Below, piece by piece: positions 50,580 through 57,458 of a stretch of DNA of 64,000 nt. The position numbers were made by a program, and so were the translations under genes. The notes under the pieces were generated by a model. It saw nothing but the letters and a program-made list of their open reading frames with translations. It ran no database searches and had not been told where the DNA came from. The stretch is taken from assembly GCA_028820655.1 (NCBI GenBank), contig JAPPIK010000056.1, positions 213,880 to 277,879 of the forward strand. The letters run 5' to 3'. Origin of the DNA: Candidatus Poribacteria bacterium. Its GTDB lineage: Bacteria; Poribacteria; WGA-4E; JAJDTR01. The stretch's first letter is position 1, and every line of letters begins with the position of its first letter.

Positions 50580-51270
50580 GTGGGCCTCCTAAAATTCAAT
50601 ATACCGTCAATTGTGCATAAACACGTAACGGCGAGATGCAATCGTATAGCGCACGTGCATCGTGCAGCCGAACCCGCCCGGTTAAACAAGCTTACCCTTT
50701 CCATCACAAAGCCGGGCAAGCTAAAGACTATAGCGCCAAGCGTTTGAAGAGCGCCCCAATTGTCACAGTTGAATCTTGCGTTGCTAGGTTGATTGTGCAA
50801 AACATTTCCCGGATTTGAAAATACTCTTTTTGATACTCCTCTGCATCCCGTGTCTCTTGGTAGCGCATGATCTCACAGATTATTTGCGAGGTCGACATGA
50901 ACCGGGCAAAGGCAGGTATGATAACGTATCGTGCGGCGCGTTCCCAGCGAACGTCCCCGATGTCTAAAGGGGGTTTTTTCTTTTTTTACGATTGTCCTTC
51001 TCAATTGCCTCCAAGTAGATAATTTAAGTTGCAGTAAACTACGTCGCTGCAGGAAAAACAGGAAGACCGCCCAAAACGCACTGAATCGGAATAGAATTGA
51101 TTTTAGATGGTTCTCCAGAGGATTTACTACCGCCTTGGGAGTTCTATAGGATCTAAATTGCGTCCGCCGTTCACTCACTTGATCACTCGCAAGTCGCTCG
51201 CTTGCTGGATTTTCGCGTGAATCGGTCATTTTGGATGAATTCTCCGGAAAACGGCTTTCATACTTTCGAT
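50580..51270. other. gene-free stretch
   Basis: About 690 bp with no credible gene on either strand. It includes R1-type words at about 51165-51210 (CACTTGATCACTCG, TCGCTCGCTTG). Confidence 0.45.
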
Positions 51271-51636
51271 TTAAGCGGTTTTCTCGGAATCGGGAGTATC
51301 CTGATACCCCGCCGAATGCCGTGTTAAGTGGTCGATGTGGTTTTGATTGAGTTTGCTGATTTCGGCAGCCACATCGGAAAGGCGCTGGTTCATTTCCGAG
51401 CGCACCTCTATGATTTCGGCTTTGACATCGGTAAAGCGTTTGTCCATTTTGTCTTCTAGCCGTTCGATAGCATGTATCAACGTTTCGGATTGTTTGTGCA
51501 TGGCGTCGTTCTGTTTATCCATGCGTTTTTCGAGGCTGCCGGTTCGGTAGAACAGCACGGCGACTTGACCGACGAACGCCAGCAGCGCGAAGGCGGCGAG
51601 GATGGTGTGTGACGGTGACCAGCTGGCAAAATCCAT
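51271..51636 (-). CDS. membrane-anchored coiled-coil protein
   Basis: 121 residues from the ATG at 51636, which follows AAAGGA. One N-terminal membrane segment (TILAAFALLAFVGQVAVLFY at about 11-30) leads into a long heptad-patterned helix (SLEKRMDKQNDAMHKQSETL, LEDKMDKRFTDVKAEI, EVRSEMNQRLSDVAAEISKL), then a short polar tail. Such a layout resembles small hydrophobic-anchor coiled coils of phage and of unknown families. An open frame of 48 codons upstream is made partly of R1 repeat and is not part of the gene. Confidence 0.7.
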   Translation of the reverse strand: MDFASWSPSHTILAAFALLAFVGQVAVLFYRTGSLEKRMDKQNDAMHKQSETLIHAIERLEDKMDKRFTDVKAEIIEVRSEMNQRLSDVAAEISKLNQNHIDHLTRHSAGYQDTPDSEKTA

Positions 51637-51755
51637 TAGATTGTCCTTTCGATTGAATGAAAAGAGGGGGAACAATGCCCAGCACCTGAATGGATAGCGA
51701 AGGATCAAGGGAGCGGCTAGCGAGCACGATAGGAGTCCCGTAGAGAATCCTGAGG

Positions 51756-51932
51756 TTATGTCGAAAGTGTTGTCGGACAAATGTCCAGTTCTCCGAAGGG
51801 GCGTGGTTGCCGGATTTTAGCGCGTTTGTCCGCTTTGGTTTTGCGTTCAATCAGACGCGGCAGGTCACTGGCGACGCATTCATGAATGATGTCGCTGATA
51901 TAGAGGTCGAGGCGTTCAGCCGCGGCAGACAT
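51756..51932 (-). CDS. small protein, possible broken ribbon-helix-helix
   Basis: 58 residues from the ATG at 51932 (SAAAERLDLYISDIIHECVASDLPRLIER). Immediately upstream in the same frame a TAG at 51941 separates it from about 25 more codons that read like the first strand and helix of a ribbon-helix-helix protein (GRPNKIRFSSKVSVGFSDKI). So it is either the remnant of a longer DNA-binding antitoxin-like protein cut by a stop, or a short protein started behind AGGA at 51940-51937. Function unknown. Confidence 0.4.
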   Translation of the reverse strand: MSAAAERLDLYISDIIHECVASDLPRLIERKTKADKRAKIRQPRPFGELDICPTTLST

Positions 51933-52217
51933 TTGTTCCTAGATTTTATCACTGAATCCGACGCTGACTTTACTTGAGAATCGTATTTTATTGGGTCGTC
52001 CAAATTGGTTTATTTGTGGGGCATTGCCCTCTCTTCACAATTTGTGGACATGGTATCGTATCATAGAAGTTTATGCAAGGGAAACAGAGGCTATAAAGCA
52101 TCCAAAACAGGCTTGACTTCGCGGTTGCGTTTCAGGGCTCTCAGGGAATCTTGATGGAAACGAGCACGCTTACCGTGCCAATGATGTACCACAGGTATTC
52201 AAGCGGGATCATGCGGG

Positions 52218-55200
52218 TTAGCCTCCTTCCGGCGCATCGGCGTACTGATTGAATCCTAGCCCGCGGACATGAGGTTCTTTGTGCAGTAGGTGGCGTAGGC
52301 GAGTTAATTCTTCGGGGGCCCAGCCCATGGCGTCAGCAACAGCATCATCCCAAACCTGGCGCACTTGACACTCGCCTTCACGGTATTGAGGCACAACCGT
52401 ATCCTTTGTGCGCTCCCAGCAGTTGAGCAATACTTGCATGACGCGGGGGGCATTTCGGTCAGGCACAGGTATTCCTCTTATACTATCGAGGCTGAACATA
52501 GGGTACGTAATTTTTCTGCTCGCTATTGCCCCCATTTGGAGTCTTCCGGGCGTGGAGTTCAGATAAACGGCTAGTGCTTTTGCTTCGTCTGCGGATACGT
52601 TTGGGACTGTCCGCCAAGCATTTGTACTAACATATTTTGTCGTACTAGCAATGGCAGTGACTCTAGCGGAGGCACTATCTTGCCTGCCGGTAATCAATAA
52701 GTGCCCCGCCGACTGTAGAAGTGTGTCAAATTCGTCTTGGGAGGTATTGGGTTTTGTTCTCCATTGCCTATCAGGTCTGCTTTGGATAGTACGTTGACCA
52801 TCCTTACCGGCTGTATCTACGACAAAGAACGAATCCTGCTCCCCCTCCGTTGCGCGCACACATTTCTTGAGCAATTCATCGCCCACCCGAGAGATGGTGT
52901 AATTGTCACCTAAGGGTAGTAACCTTGAATCTGTGAAAAATCCGTGGGCTTCCGCCAATTTCGGGGACCTCCAAACAGTGCTTGACCAGTCACCTGCGAG
53001 CATTTGCTCCTCCGTACAGTAGGATACCTCCCCCCACCCGTCCGCCATGAGTCCTTGAGTACACTCGAGCAGCCTCCAATGCAGCTTTTCAACTTCGGAT
53101 TCCTGCGTTGGCATCTTGTCTAGCGATATAAACCGCGTCTGTAGTTGGGTGCCTTCGGAGGTATAATTGCGACGACGGAGAACAATGATGCTTTCGCCTA
53201 TGTCACAATTCTGACTCAGATTAATCTGTTTTGGTTGATGACAGGTGAGCACCGTGTGTACATGATAACGCTCTGCGAGAAACTTTCGTTCAGAGAGCCC
53301 GCTAGCGGAAGTCAAAGACATGGTAGGTACTACAGACGTCATAATTCCGTCGTCCTTAGATAGGATTTTATCCGCTAGCGCGACAAACAAGGGACGACAG
53401 GTATTCTTATCCATGAAAGTGCTTGTCAGGCATTTTTCCATCGCATCGGTTCGGGCGCATAGTCGGTCTTTGATTTGCTTCGGGAATTTTTCGCCCATTT
53501 TCGCCCTGTTTGTGAACGGTGGATTCATGATTACAATCTTTGCGTCTTTGACGGCTTCGACCGCTTCTTCAAGTTCCGGGGACCCGTGTGGCCAGACGCT
53601 TTTAGATGCTATTTCTTCGTCCGGTATGCCGTCCAATTCTCCCTGACGCTCGACGATGGCACTTTGACCTAGCAGTTCCAGGGTGCCTGTGGATACCTTA
53701 TATTCGTTATCGGGATGTGGACCGTAAGGCATCTGGAACAGCCCCATTTTCCTGTAACTAACGTGTTGATTGCCGGCGGTCAGTTGAGATGCGGCTAACT
53801 GTAGGGATATGGGGTTTATATCCAGACCCTTTATGGTTTCTTCAACAGCTGTCTTCTGGAAACTAGTGAGTTGAAGCTCATTCGCACCGCACTTTTTCGC
53901 GCGGCGTTTCATGTCGGTCAGCATAGCTGTGAGTAATGTTCCGCTGCCGCAAGCCAAATCAACAATTTTTAAGTCTGTCCAGACCTGTTCGTCTGTCCAA
54001 TCCACGTCGCCACATGCGTCGAGCGTCAAACGCGCGGCGATAGAGGCAGCCACGGGCCTTGTGAAGTACGCCCCATCGCTTGCCTGATTCCCCATGATTT
54101 TGTTGAATAACGCCCCGGCGTGATCCGCTCCCATATCGGCATAGGTTTCCGCGATGCGTTCCGCTTCGGCGCAAATATGACGCAGTGCTCTTTCGAGCCC
54201 CGCAATTTTACCGGTATCCTCGATAGCGTAAATAGCCGTTAGTGCCGGATCGAATATCGCGTGAAAATCATGCTTCATAATATTAGGCCATTCTCGCGAT
54301 ATGGCCTTAACAATGTTAGTATTGTTTTTTAGCGTTAACAGGTCAGATACGCCAGGCAGCCATTTACCGTTACTGATGCGCTGGTGAAGCATGGCTGCGT
54401 TCATCATGAGCAACGATGCGATTACACAGCCGTCTGCTGTTTTGGCTTGGGCGTCCGAGGTCATGTTATGTAGCTGAAAATGCTTATTGAGGGGTTCCCT
54501 GAGGCGTTCGGCTCTTAGATGAAAGGCGGCTTCGTTTACGGCGTCCTCAAGCAGGTTGAGATCTCTGGTGATACGGTCATTGGTTAACCCGGATTTGGCA
54601 AGCAAGTTCATGCTGATGGTTTTTTCGTTTTCACTCAAATCCTTGAGATACAACTGCATGCGTGTGAGGGGCTTTTCTTGTGTCTTAACGGAGGCGTCGA
54701 GTTTAATTCCAGCGCCGTCGTTTATCATTTTCCGAGCCTTTTTCTTCGTCTTCTCAATGTCTACCTTTCCTCGCGGTTCGTCGTGTTTTGGCTTGGTTCG
54801 AGCAACGGTATCCAGGCGCATCTCAACGCTGCTGTCTTGATTCTTTTTCCCCGTGATTATACCGGTTGGTTCCTCGTCTGCTTGGTACGTTGTTTGTACG
54901 GGCTTAAATTGGCTTTCAAAAGACTCATTGCCCGCAAGCACTTCCTCTACGGTTTTTTGAGCTGTGCCGCTTTGCCCTTCGTGTACGCCGTACTGTATCT
55001 GCCCGCTCTCGTGGAGGGCGACTGCGACGAAGGTGTGAGACTTCGGTGGCGGCGATGGCAGATACAACATTAGCAATCCTTCTAAGTTATCTTCAATGCG
55101 CTGGTCATGTGAACGCAGAGCGCGGAGTATTTGACCGAGTTCTTTCCACCCCTCCTCCTCGTTGCTAGCGCTAAGGTGTTGTTCGGGGTCCGCGTTAGGT

Positions 55201-56537
55201 GGTATGAGTACCGGGCACACAATGTAGCCCATGGTTTTGCCAGGTGCGGTGCGCATAGCGCGTCCGACGGCTTGAATAACGTCAATAGGGCTTTTTCGGG
55301 GTTCTAAGAATGCAACGGCGCTTAAAGAAGGAGAGTCTGTGCCCTCGCCAAATATCCCCACATTTATGACGCCGTGGGGGGCGGATTCAGTGGCGCTGGC
55401 AAGGCGTCGCTTGGCGTCATCTCTCTGTGTGACGCTGCTCGTGGCGTCTAGGTGTTCCAATGTATACTCCGAAGCCTGCGTGCCTCTTATGTGCGTGTTA
55501 AGGTTATTATCTACCCATGTCTTAACTTCTTTTTCATTTAAGGCAGAAGCCATGCGTTTGGATTTGTCCACCCTATTCATAAAAGCGATACATGATTTTA
55601 GTTGCGCGGGGATGGGGAAGTGCCCATCCGCCTGTGTTGAACCACCCATAACGAGAGCGAAGGCAAGGCCCCGAAGATAGTCGAGGGTGTTTAATGAGGC
55701 AGAATCGGGTTTGTTCGCGAGGCGATTCGCTTCGTCGTAAGCTTCTTTGGAGTTGATACCTAATGCGATGATGCGATAATCGGATAGCCATCTGTTTTTG
55801 ACGGATTCCACATAACTTTTCCGGTAGAGCTCGACGCCAAAGACGGTTTCATCGTCCATGCTGCGGACGATCCAGGTGTGGGGATTACTCTGTTGTTTTG
55901 TGTCCACTTTTTGTGTGTCATATATTCTAGGGGTGGCGGTCTGATAGAGACGGAAAATCGCGGGGAATTCGGCGTTGTCATGGCATAGCGTGAAGTCTCG
56001 GACACGTCTCTCATCCTCTGACATGACCTCTTTGGGTGCATTATTCTTGCGAAGGCCTGCTGTGCGGTGCGCCTCGTCTGCAATGAGAATTTTGGCAGTT
56101 ACATTCGTTGATCTTAGCGCGTCCGCGATGGGTCTGCCACTCTGATACGTACCAAAGATAACGCTTATCCGGTCGGTGTTTTGACCTTGCGATATCCAGT
56201 CTGCGATTTTTCCGCTGTCTGTGGTCACTTCGCCTTTTACTTCCGACGCACTGACGTTGCTATTATCTACCGTGGGATCCTTCGCCGTATTCCGAGTTCC
56301 CTCTTTACCGGGGGCGTACCCCGCCGTTTTATCAGAGCATACCGCCAGTGTCCGAAGGCCAGCTTTTGTGTATTGAAGGTATTCACGGCGTATCTGGGCG
56401 ACTAAGGCTATGGACGGGCAAAGGACTATCGCCAGTTCGCCCGACGGTGTCAATTCCTCCATGATGCGGAGTGATACCCGTGTTTTCCCCGTGCCGCAAG
56501 GCAAAATGATTTTTCCGCGCGCCTGCCCAATAGGCAC
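52218..56537 (-). CDS. helicase-methylase part of a type ISP-like restriction-modification enzyme
   Basis: 1439 residues. It begins inside a superfamily 2 helicase: Walker A LPCGTGKT at 12-19, DEAH box ADEAHR at 153-158, and GIFGEGTDSPSLSAVAFLEPR with QAVGRAMR near 395-435. An N6-adenine methylase follows: motif I DLACGSGTLL near 858, and NPPF near 1001. The last 280 residues should be the target recognition domain. No start fits the helicase N-terminus (the first codon is GTG, without a ribosome site). The missing front, including a Mrr-like nuclease, is present just upstream in another frame (56450-57163). Order and combined size (about 1640 residues) match the single-chain ISP enzymes such as LlaBIII and LlaGI, which methylate one strand and translocate to cut. 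Confidence 0.85.
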   Translation of the reverse strand: MPIGQARGKIILPCGTGKTRVSLRIMEELTPSGELAIVLCPSIALVAQIRREYLQYTKAGLRTLAVCSDKTAGYAPGKEGTRNTAKDPTVDNSNVSASEVKGEVTTDSGKIADWISQGQNTDRISVIFGTYQSGRPIADALRSTNVTAKILIADEAHRTAGLRKNNAPKEVMSEDERRVRDFTLCHDNAEFPAIFRLYQTATPRIYDTQKVDTKQQSNPHTWIVRSMDDETVFGVELYRKSYVESVKNRWLSDYRIIALGINSKEAYDEANRLANKPDSASLNTLDYLRGLAFALVMGGSTQADGHFPIPAQLKSCIAFMNRVDKSKRMASALNEKEVKTWVDNNLNTHIRGTQASEYTLEHLDATSSVTQRDDAKRRLASATESAPHGVINVGIFGEGTDSPSLSAVAFLEPRKSPIDVIQAVGRAMRTAPGKTMGYIVCPVLIPPNADPEQHLSASNEEEGWKELGQILRALRSHDQRIEDNLEGLLMLYLPSPPPKSHTFVAVALHESGQIQYGVHEGQSGTAQKTVEEVLAGNESFESQFKPVQTTYQADEEPTGIITGKKNQDSSVEMRLDTVARTKPKHDEPRGKVDIEKTKKKARKMINDGAGIKLDASVKTQEKPLTRMQLYLKDLSENEKTISMNLLAKSGLTNDRITRDLNLLEDAVNEAAFHLRAERLREPLNKHFQLHNMTSDAQAKTADGCVIASLLMMNAAMLHQRISNGKWLPGVSDLLTLKNNTNIVKAISREWPNIMKHDFHAIFDPALTAIYAIEDTGKIAGLERALRHICAEAERIAETYADMGADHAGALFNKIMGNQASDGAYFTRPVAASIAARLTLDACGDVDWTDEQVWTDLKIVDLACGSGTLLTAMLTDMKRRAKKCGANELQLTSFQKTAVEETIKGLDINPISLQLAASQLTAGNQHVSYRKMGLFQMPYGPHPDNEYKVSTGTLELLGQSAIVERQGELDGIPDEEIASKSVWPHGSPELEEAVEAVKDAKIVIMNPPFTNRAKMGEKFPKQIKDRLCARTDAMEKCLTSTFMDKNTCRPLFVALADKILSKDDGIMTSVVPTMSLTSASGLSERKFLAERYHVHTVLTCHQPKQINLSQNCDIGESIIVLRRRNYTSEGTQLQTRFISLDKMPTQESEVEKLHWRLLECTQGLMADGWGEVSYCTEEQMLAGDWSSTVWRSPKLAEAHGFFTDSRLLPLGDNYTISRVGDELLKKCVRATEGEQDSFFVVDTAGKDGQRTIQSRPDRQWRTKPNTSQDEFDTLLQSAGHLLITGRQDSASARVTAIASTTKYVSTNAWRTVPNVSADEAKALAVYLNSTPGRLQMGAIASRKITYPMFSLDSIRGIPVPDRNAPRVMQVLLNCWERTKDTVVPQYREGECQVRQVWDDAVADAMGWAPEELTRLRHLLHKEPHVRGLGFNQYADAPEGG

Positions 56538-57163
56538 AGTCCGCCGCTTTCCGATCGTTCATGTTCTCTAAGGATTCTTACACTTTCGGAAACCGCCTCT
56601 GACTGCATACAGTTCTTGGATTGACGGCGCTCTTCATTCTGAGGGTTCGGGGCGCAGTGGGGGCACGCTTCTGCCGGTTCCGGGAATGAGGCTTGCTGCT
56701 GCTGCAAGTCTTGGCGGATGTTGATAAGCTTAATGGGGTGGAAATCTGGTATGACTGCCAAAGCATTCTTGCTTAGGGAATTTCCCCCGTTTGTGATAAT
56801 CCAACGTTCAGCCCAAAAATCCGGATCTGAAGACGCGGCGGCGAAGCTGTCAACCTCCCTCTTCGATATATCTGCACCCTGTTCCACGTTGTCCAACTGA
56901 CGCGATTTACACTGAATAGCAATATGTTTGCTGTCGGTGCGCCTGATAGCGACGACATCAATTCCGACGTCTGTTCCCGTGGATTTGGGTAATTCTTGCT
57001 GCCGGTCGGGCCACTCGCTCCAGAGCCAACATCGCTCAAGATCCCACTCCTGAACGTGACTCGCCACTTCAACAACCAATTGTTCAAGCCATTTGCCGTC
57101 GGAGCGTTTATAACTATTCTCCTCTACGCACTCTATTGCTTCGCGAATAATATCTTGCGTCAT
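56450..57163 (-). CDS. Mrr-like nuclease part of the same enzyme, frameshifted
   Basis: 237 codons are open, but only the first about 208 residues belong to the protein; after ESGG the natural continuation is in the helicase frame (PIGQARGKIILPCG). The nuclease core is of the Mrr type of PD-(D/E)XK: D69 in GTDVGIDVVAIRR and Q84-C85-K86 in IAIQCKSR, preceded by an acidic helix KWLEQLVVEVASHV. A single-base deletion around 56537-56545 would explain the break. If real, the product is a stranded nuclease without its motor and the restriction function is lost; if a sequencing error, the enzyme is whole. Confidence 0.82.
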   Translation of the reverse strand: MTQDIIREAIECVEENSYKRSDGKWLEQLVVEVASHVQEWDLERCWLWSEWPDRQQELPKSTGTDVGIDVVAIRRTDSKHIAIQCKSRQLDNVEQGADISKREVDSFAAASSDPDFWAERWIITNGGNSLSKNALAVIPDFHPIKLINIRQDLQQQQASFPEPAEACPHCAPNPQNEERRQSKNCMQSEAVSESVRILREHERSESGGLCLLGRRAEKSFCLAARGKHGYHSASWRN

Positions 57164-57458
57164 GAGCTCCCCATAGGTGTAATAAAACGTTGCAAAAAAA
57201 GTCGTCGTGTAGGGTGTGTGCAGACAGAATCCTCCTAAAGAATGTTCTGATCGGTTCTGGACATCCGGTGCTTGGATGCGATAGAATCAGCCACTGTCTT
57301 TTCACGTTCAACAATGCGCTGAGTAGACTGCGATTGAAAGCTTCCGCGGGTCGGTCCCGGCGGGGGCCTGTTCTATTTCAGGTTATCAAATCCGCTTGTG
57401 CTAGTCAGGATGTTGCGCTTCCAATTCGCCTTCGAGTGCACGGAGGGGCTTGACCCAC
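57164..57458. other. intergenic gap
   Basis: About 295 bp between the restriction gene and the isomerase gene, both leftward. A few short frames, none with a ribosome site or family likeness. Confidence 0.4.

What the first reader, a model, noticed from the sequence alone, without database searches (positions are those of the whole stretch)
52218..57163. Type ISP-like restriction-modification enzyme split by one frameshift
The nuclease frame (56450-57163) and the helicase-methylase frame (52218-56537) overlap, and the junction ESGG / PIGQARGKIILPCG reads naturally only if one base is restored near 56540. The reunited chain of about 1640 residues has the LlaBIII order nuclease, helicase, methylase, target recognition. 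It is either a recently silenced defence gene, a phase-variable one, or a base-call error.
Basis: partly seen in the sequence, partly recalled or inferred. Interest (0 to 1): 0.6.

Follow-up and report, generated by a model that had tools for sequence, protein, structure and literature searches.

The report
Broken single-chain restriction-modification gene
A bacterium carries a probably recently gained anti-phage gene for one giant DNA-cutting, DNA-walking and DNA-marking enzyme, broken here by two extra bases between the cutter and the walker, and a sister group of the same enzyme carries stuttering repeats that look like built-in on/off switches.

Summary
ORF 56450-57163(-) is an Mrr-type nuclease; ORF 52218-56537(-) is a helicase-methylase-recognition chain. 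The eight relatives compared across this junction read both parts in one frame. Codon alignment shows two extra bases (TG, about 56535-56538), not one missing base.

The gene is only half a canonical Type ISP enzyme. Its nuclease-helicase half is ISP-like, but its C-terminal half matches neither ISP Pfam domain and groups with BrxX/PglX- and Type IIG-like gamma methylases.

It lies in a ~6.8-kb stretch absent from a congener. About 25 kb of neighbouring coding DNA shows no net frame-breaking indel, so a noisy assembly is unlikely, although no reads were available. The break is not in a repeat. I read it as a recent inactivation that may leave the methylase ORF expressible, as in the split Helicobacter Type ISP gene (PMC3936762).

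By-product: a sister clade carries long poly-C and (AG)7-35 tracts inside this gene, 15 in 64 kb against 2 in 239 kb of surrounding DNA. Phase variation is likely there, but is not shown for the window copy.

The parts
56450..57163 (-). Nuclease ORF (237 aa): Mrr-family PD-QxK nuclease plus linker; the last ~28 residues are out-of-frame tail
   Evidence: Mrr_cat_2 3.2e-16; PADLOC PDLC03597 positions 19-189 of 1646; invariant G67-x-D69 and Q84-x-K86 in 8 relatives
56906..56959 (-). Predicted nuclease catalytic residues D69 ... Q84-x-K86
   Evidence: invariant in alignment A2; assignment by analogy to the PD-QxK form described for Type ISP (PMC3874165)
56535..56538 (-). Site of the two extra bases (TG within CTGTGCC); breaks the nuclease-to-helicase frame and creates a GTG codon in the helicase frame
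   Evidence: codon alignment with L003, L027-L032, L034; single +2 shift by frame-aware alignment
56450..56555 (-). Stretch where both frames are open
   Evidence: translation in both frames
52218..56537 (-). Helicase-methylase-recognition ORF (1439 aa from the GTG at 56537)
   Evidence: ORF list; ResIII, Helicase_C, Eco57I and N6_Mtase matches; LlaBIII/LlaGI helicase 1e-51 over residues 7-490
56481..56495 (-). Walker A (GTGKT) of the SF2 translocase
   Evidence: translation and alignment with LlaBIII
53937..53960 (-). Methylase motif I (DLACGSGT)
   Evidence: D370-T377 conserved in alignment A1
53514..53525 (-). Methylase motif IV (NPPF)
   Evidence: N515-F518 invariant in A1
52221..54620 (-). 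Helical + gamma-class N6-adenine methylase + TRD part; AlphaFold2 model pLDDT 81.7, pTM 0.83
   Evidence: Foldseek hits CamA, BseCI, BrxX/PglX, BpuSI, and LlaBIII at rank 45
50626..57454 (.). Stretch of about 6.8 kb replaced by 63 bp in a congeneric genome (G013) whose flanks are 90-91% identical
   Evidence: weak visible similarity may continue to about 50673 on the left

Best explanation
The locus encodes an ISP-like single-chain restriction-modification enzyme, variably present in its genus: an Mrr nuclease and SF2 translocase of the Type ISP lineage fused to a BrxX/PglX- and Type IIG-like gamma N6-adenine methylase with its own recognition domain. Intact relatives should recognise an unmethylated asymmetric site, translocate using ATP and cut, while methylating their own sites (inferred from LlaGI/LlaBIII). 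In this genome a real two-base insertion in the nuclease-helicase linker recently broke the chain. Translation from the ATG now gives only the untethered nuclease with a short nonsense tail, so restriction is off. The downstream ORF keeps every helicase, methylase and TRD motif and has a GTG start created by the insertion, so residual methylation (M-on, R-off) is possible but not shown.
For: One frame in the eight relatives compared at the junction; exactly one +2 shift and no stops in ~1,650 codons, all catalytic motifs kept, so the break is young. No net frame-breaking indel in 24.9 kb of neighbouring coding DNA against a congener. No repeat at the site: no homopolymer over 6 and no dinucleotide run of 4 or more units in the gene. 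The gene is on a stretch missing from the congener. Frame breaks of relatives lie at other positions, as expected of decay and not of a conserved recoding site. Precedents: a Type ISP gene of H. pylori split by frameshifts not due to repeats, whose downstream part HP0669 alone is an active methylase (PMC3936762); LlaGI without its nuclease keeps translocating (PMC4872093).
Against: No reads, so a local consensus error is not excluded. No second strain of the species was available. The GTG start has only a weak Shine-Dalgarno match (-5.0 kcal/mol, against -7.8 for the nuclease ATG; random background median -2.5), so M-on is uncertain. The direction (gain here or loss in the congener) rests on one congener.
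Confidence: 0.7

Rival explanations
1. Base-call or assembly error: the organism has the intact frame.
For: All else in the gene is intact. Several relatives' apparent breaks turned out to be assembly gaps with N or poly-G/C junk (L083, L088).
Against: A dinucleotide gain outside any homopolymer is an unusual sequencing error; 24.9 kb of flanking coding DNA has no net frame-breaking indel against a congener; the other ISP-type gene of the same genome is an intact 1,604-aa ORF.
Confidence: 0.15
2. Reversible phase-variable OFF allele.
For: A sister clade of the same family has long poly-C and (AG)n tracts in the gene, including at the nuclease-helicase boundary (L140, L141) and the methylase-TRD boundary.
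Against: The window site is only (TG)2 and the gene has no long repeat. The window belongs to a separate, well-supported clade of 12 rows in which only one member (L146, G10, in frame) has any tract.
Confidence: 0.07
3. Programmed -1 frameshifting or a functional two-gene split that makes a nuclease subunit and a helicase-methylase subunit.
For: The insertion creates a GTG start right at the domain boundary, the frames overlap, and the downstream product resembles the active LlaGI deletion mutant. A heptamer of X XXY YYZ form (G GGA AAA) lies in the overlap.
Against: Relatives are fused without any shift. The heptamer lies inside the Walker A codons, so slipping there would destroy the P-loop. 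The GTG start has a weak Shine-Dalgarno. An untethered nuclease would lose its link to the translocase.
Confidence: 0.08

Closest known systems
[quoted passage not shown]
   Same: Domain order; Mrr PD-QxK nuclease; SF2 translocase (about 35% identity to a genuine ISP helicase in the same genome, profile match over 616 columns); gamma-class methylase then a C-terminal TRD
   Different: No ISP_coupler and no Type_ISP_C domain; a ~170-residue linker of its own after the helicase; methylase-TRD half not alignable to ISP by sequence; chain broken in this genome
BrxX/PglX, CamA, BseCI and Type IIG methylases (BpuSI, DrdV, BsaXI)
   Same: Methylase-TRD half: profile hits to BrxX 1e-12, DrdV, BsaXI and TaqI; Foldseek E down to 1e-15; standalone ~930-1,150-aa relatives in many genomes
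   Different: Here fused behind a nuclease-translocase instead of standing alone or beside BREX genes
Helicobacter pylori HP0667-HP0668-HP0669 (HpyAXVIII) and JHP0612-JHP0613
   Same: Type ISP genes split by frameshifts that are not repeat-driven; in 26695 the downstream methylase-TRD ORF alone is active (PMC3936762)
   Different: Different lineage; here one break, at the nuclease-helicase linker, and methylation untested
Phase-variable single-chain Type IIG systems (Campylobacter, PMC4889913; H. pylori JHP1272 and HP1353-1354, PMC3936762)
   Same: Tracts inside a single-chain R-M gene that can switch activity or TRD, as in the sister clade found here
   Different: The window gene has no tract; the sister-clade enzymes carry an ISP-type translocase

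Membership tests
Type ISP restriction-modification enzymes | Single polypeptide from nuclease to TRD | tested here: not met
   Two frames in the window; met in intact relatives
Type ISP restriction-modification enzymes | N-terminal Mrr-family PD-QxK nuclease | tested here: met
   Mrr_cat_2 3.2e-16; GxD...QxK invariant
Type ISP restriction-modification enzymes | SF2 helicase-like translocase of the LlaBIII type | tested here: met
   LlaBIII/LlaGI 1e-51 over residues 7-490; profile-profile match 5e-71 over 616 columns with canonical ISP
Type ISP restriction-modification enzymes | ISP coupler domain (PF22240) | tested here: not met
   Not reported for the window ORF at E<=0.01 nor for five intact relatives at E<=1; 7.6e-42 in the canonical ISP gene of the same genome. 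A helical region of unassigned family sits there in the model
Type ISP restriction-modification enzymes | Type ISP C-terminal specificity domain (PF18135) | tested here: not met
   Not reported for the window ORF at E<=0.01 nor for five intact relatives at E<=1; 1.5e-76 in the canonical gene
Type ISP restriction-modification enzymes | Gamma-class N6-adenine methylase | tested here: met
   DLACGSGT and NPPF motifs; fold match to CamA, BseCI, BrxX and LlaBIII. Class only; the lineage is not the ISP one
Type ISP restriction-modification enzymes | ATP-driven translocation, cleavage between head-to-head sites, one-strand methylation | not testable with these tools
   Biochemistry and methylome needed
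Phase-variable R-M genes (window copy) | Hypermutable repeat at the site of the frame change | tested here: not met
   No homopolymer over 6 and no dinucleotide run of 4 or more units in the gene
Phase-variable R-M genes (sister clade, not the window) | Hypermutable repeat inside the reading frame, length varying between relatives | tested here: met
   (AG)7, 12, 14, 19, 26, 35 at one position and poly-C 9-14; 15 tracts in 64 kb against 2 in 239 kb
Phase-variable R-M genes (sister clade, not the window) | Both states seen within one population | not testable with these tools
   No reads

The most novel reading that the evidence does not exclude
The gene belongs to an undescribed family of chimeric ISP-like enzymes in which the linkers between modules are switch points. 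In a sister clade, hypermutable poly-C and (AG)n tracts at the nuclease-helicase and methylase-TRD boundaries could drop the nuclease or the recognition module separately, moving cells between full defence, methylation only and off or altered specificity. The window's break in the nuclease-helicase linker gives the same methylation-only state by an ordinary indel.
Probability: 0.25. Interest if true: 0.7.

Novelty: new variant of a known kind. Interest (0 to 1): 0.42.

Why it matters
If right, the ISP-type nuclease-translocase module can be joined to a methylase-TRD from outside the ISP lineage and presumably still be controlled by it, which bears on how modular ATP-driven restriction enzymes are. 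The window copy illustrates how such a gene is silenced in one step without obvious danger, because nuclease tethering and methylation sit on one chain. The tract-bearing sister clade, several of whose members come from sponge-associated metagenomes by their record titles, would be to my knowledge (limited to the open papers searched) the first case of SSR-type switching in ISP-like translocating enzymes.

Tried and rejected
Viral collection: no relatives of the full ORF. Plasmid and phage collections: only distant methylase-half hits. PDB search with the nuclease alone: nothing. PDB profile of the C-half from nine rows: nothing; with 31 rows: BrxX, DrdV, TaqI. First AlphaFold2 job on nine sequences was poor (pLDDT 58.7) and was not used. 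Frame breaks first counted in L083 and L088 were dropped, because they are N gaps or poly-G/C assembly junk. An excess of broken frames over canonical ISP genes (5/12 against 4/34, Fisher p = 0.04) was computed on an early sample and is not relied on; with the later members it splits by clade (2 of 11 in the window's clade, mostly tract-associated in the sister clade). A -1 slip at G GGA AAA was rejected because it lies in Walker A. One search gave empty alignments because of a variable-name clash and was rerun.

Full report
OBSERVATION. The helicase frame is open from just downstream of a stop at about 56558; the nuclease frame stops at 56450. Nine loci were first examined: L003 from another genus of the same class and L027-L034 from the genome collection. 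L003, L027-L032 and L034 have nuclease and helicase in one open frame; L033 starts downstream of the junction at a contig end. The codon alignment reads AGC GGC GGA CTG TG CCT ATT GGG CAG in the window against AGC GGC GGA CTG CCA ATC GGT CAA in L003: two extra bases, with ESGGL on one side and PIGQARGKIILPCGTGKT on the other. A frame-aware protein-to-DNA alignment of the whole gene to L003 and to L031 needs one +2 shift and finds no internal stop.

IS IT AN ERROR? Reads are not held. As an indirect test I compared 26 neighbouring window ORFs with a congener (G013). Over 24,888 coding bases at roughly 78-95% identity there is no net frame-breaking indel: one single-base gap falls near a doubtful TTG start, and one cluster of gaps sums to zero. 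The second ISP-type gene of the same genome is an intact 1,604-aa ORF. The extra bases are not in a homopolymer; the whole gene has no homopolymer longer than 6 and no dinucleotide run of 4 or more units. A real insertion is therefore more likely than an error, but this is inference.

SETTING. The congener is 90-91% identical on both sides and has 63 bp where the window has 50626-57454. The neighbours are ordinary metabolic genes (HpcH/HpaI aldolase, xylose-isomerase-like and PhyH proteins). The R-M gene is thus a solitary accessory gene; whether it was gained here or lost in the congener is not settled by one comparison.

WHAT THE PROTEIN IS. Nuclease: Mrr_cat_2 3e-16, with GxD...QxK invariant in eight relatives. 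Helicase: LlaBIII and LlaGI 1e-51 over residues 7-490. After residue ~490 the similarity to Type ISP stops. hhalign of the family against 13 canonical ISP proteins aligns 616 columns (5e-71) and then nothing; the C-halves alone give E = 0.1 (shallow profiles). A canonical ISP protein of the same genome matches ISP_coupler (7.6e-42) and Type_ISP_C (1.5e-76), whereas the window ORF (reported to E 0.01) and five intact relatives (reported to E 1) match neither. A 31-row profile of the methylase-TRD part hits BrxX (1e-12 to 3e-12), DrdV, BsaXI, BseCI and TaqI in the PDB, not LlaBIII. The AlphaFold2 model (pLDDT 81.7, pTM 0.83) matches CamA, BpuSI, BrxX and BseCI best, and LlaBIII at rank 45, E 1.5e-10. 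So the fold class (helical part, gamma methylase, TRD) is shared with Type ISP, but the lineage is not. I call it an ISP-like chimera and not a Type ISP member: it can work like one without being one.

RELATIVES AND BREAKS. Further searches of genome sets and re-reading with the frame-aware aligner give, in the window's clade, nine intact genes (L003, L027, L028, L029, L030, L031, L084, L146, L147) and two broken (window, L085), plus one with an N gap (L083). Breaks lie at different positions, which speaks against a conserved recoding site.

SISTER CLADE. A tree of the methylase core puts ten loci in one clade (SH-aLRT 99) and the window with eleven others in another (99). The ten-row clade carries long tracts inside the gene: (AG)7, 12, 14, 19, 26 and 35 at one place at the methylase-TRD boundary; poly-C 9-14 near residue 1362, where they encode prolines; and poly-C at the nuclease-helicase boundary in L141 (C13) and L140 (C9 at the contig end). 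For the tract count I took this clade plus three early-branching relatives (L137-L139). Homopolymers of 9 or more or dinucleotide runs of 6 or more units number 15 in 63.9 kb of these genes, 2 in 239 kb of surrounding DNA in mostly the same genomes (0.5 expected, Poisson P about 4e-17), 1 in 60 kb of genes of the window's clade and 0 in 116 kb of canonical ISP loci. The genes share ancestry, so the P value overstates independence, but tract lengths differ in every member. In L086, L141, L142 and L143 the frame entering the (AG)n tract stops 50-90 codons later while the TRD continues in another frame; in L087 (AG7) it reads through. L034 and L144 contigs end at or near the tract, and L145 near its poly-C tract. 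This is the anatomy of phase variation, unproven without reads. The window copy is outside this clade and has no tract.

MECHANISM. Shown: frame break, intact motifs, fused relatives, fold class. Inferred: intact enzymes act as LlaGI/LlaBIII do (recognition, ATP-driven translocation, cutting after convergence of two enzymes, one-strand methylation). Inferred for this allele: restriction off. Possible: methylation still on from the GTG that the insertion creates at 56537, with a weak ribosome site. Precedents: LlaGI lacking residues 2-165 is a soluble, active translocase (PMC4872093); H. pylori HP0669, the downstream part of a frameshifted Type ISP gene, is by itself an active methylase, and those frameshifts are not repeat-driven (PMC3936762).

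NOVELTY. A frameshift-split Type ISP gene is known from H. pylori. The chimeric build and the tract-bearing sister clade were not found described in the papers searched, a search limited to open-licence full texts. REBASE was not available.

Noticed in passing
L086, L087, L141, L142, L143, L144 (methylase-TRD boundary); L140, L141 (nuclease-helicase boundary); L144, L145 (about residue 1362): Long (AG)7-35 and poly-C tracts inside the relatives' genes, strongly enriched over surrounding DNA: candidate phase-variable R-M genes.
   Followed up: partly
G000:C4:34946-39760 (L057:947-5761, minus strand): A second, intact, canonical Type ISP gene (1,604 aa, with ISP_coupler and Type_ISP_C) on the same contig as the window.
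   Followed up: partly
51137-51213 and 51688-51750: Two copies, in opposite orientation, of a dispersed ~65-nt imperfect repeat flanking a small coiled-coil ORF (51271-51780); about 50 matches in this genome and many in the congener. Possibly a MITE- or REP-like element.
   Followed up: partly
about 51790-51990, minus strand: Remnant of a small protein (KVSVGFSDKI*EQMSAAAERLDLYISDIIHECVASDLPRLIERK, reminiscent of ribbon-helix-helix proteins) with an in-frame TAG, in the same insertion as the R-M gene.
   Followed up: no
L028, L029, L030, L031 C-termini: About 100 extra residues after the TRD (..HPAHKEIIGMGEPAVPLILERM..), with no Pfam match, absent from the window, L003 and L027.
   Followed up: no
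L101-L106, L108-L118, L058-L060, L120: Standalone ~930-1,150-aa relatives of the methylase half in many genomes of the phylum; L120 is 30% identical across nearly the whole methylase-TRD part and may resemble the module donor.
   Followed up: partly
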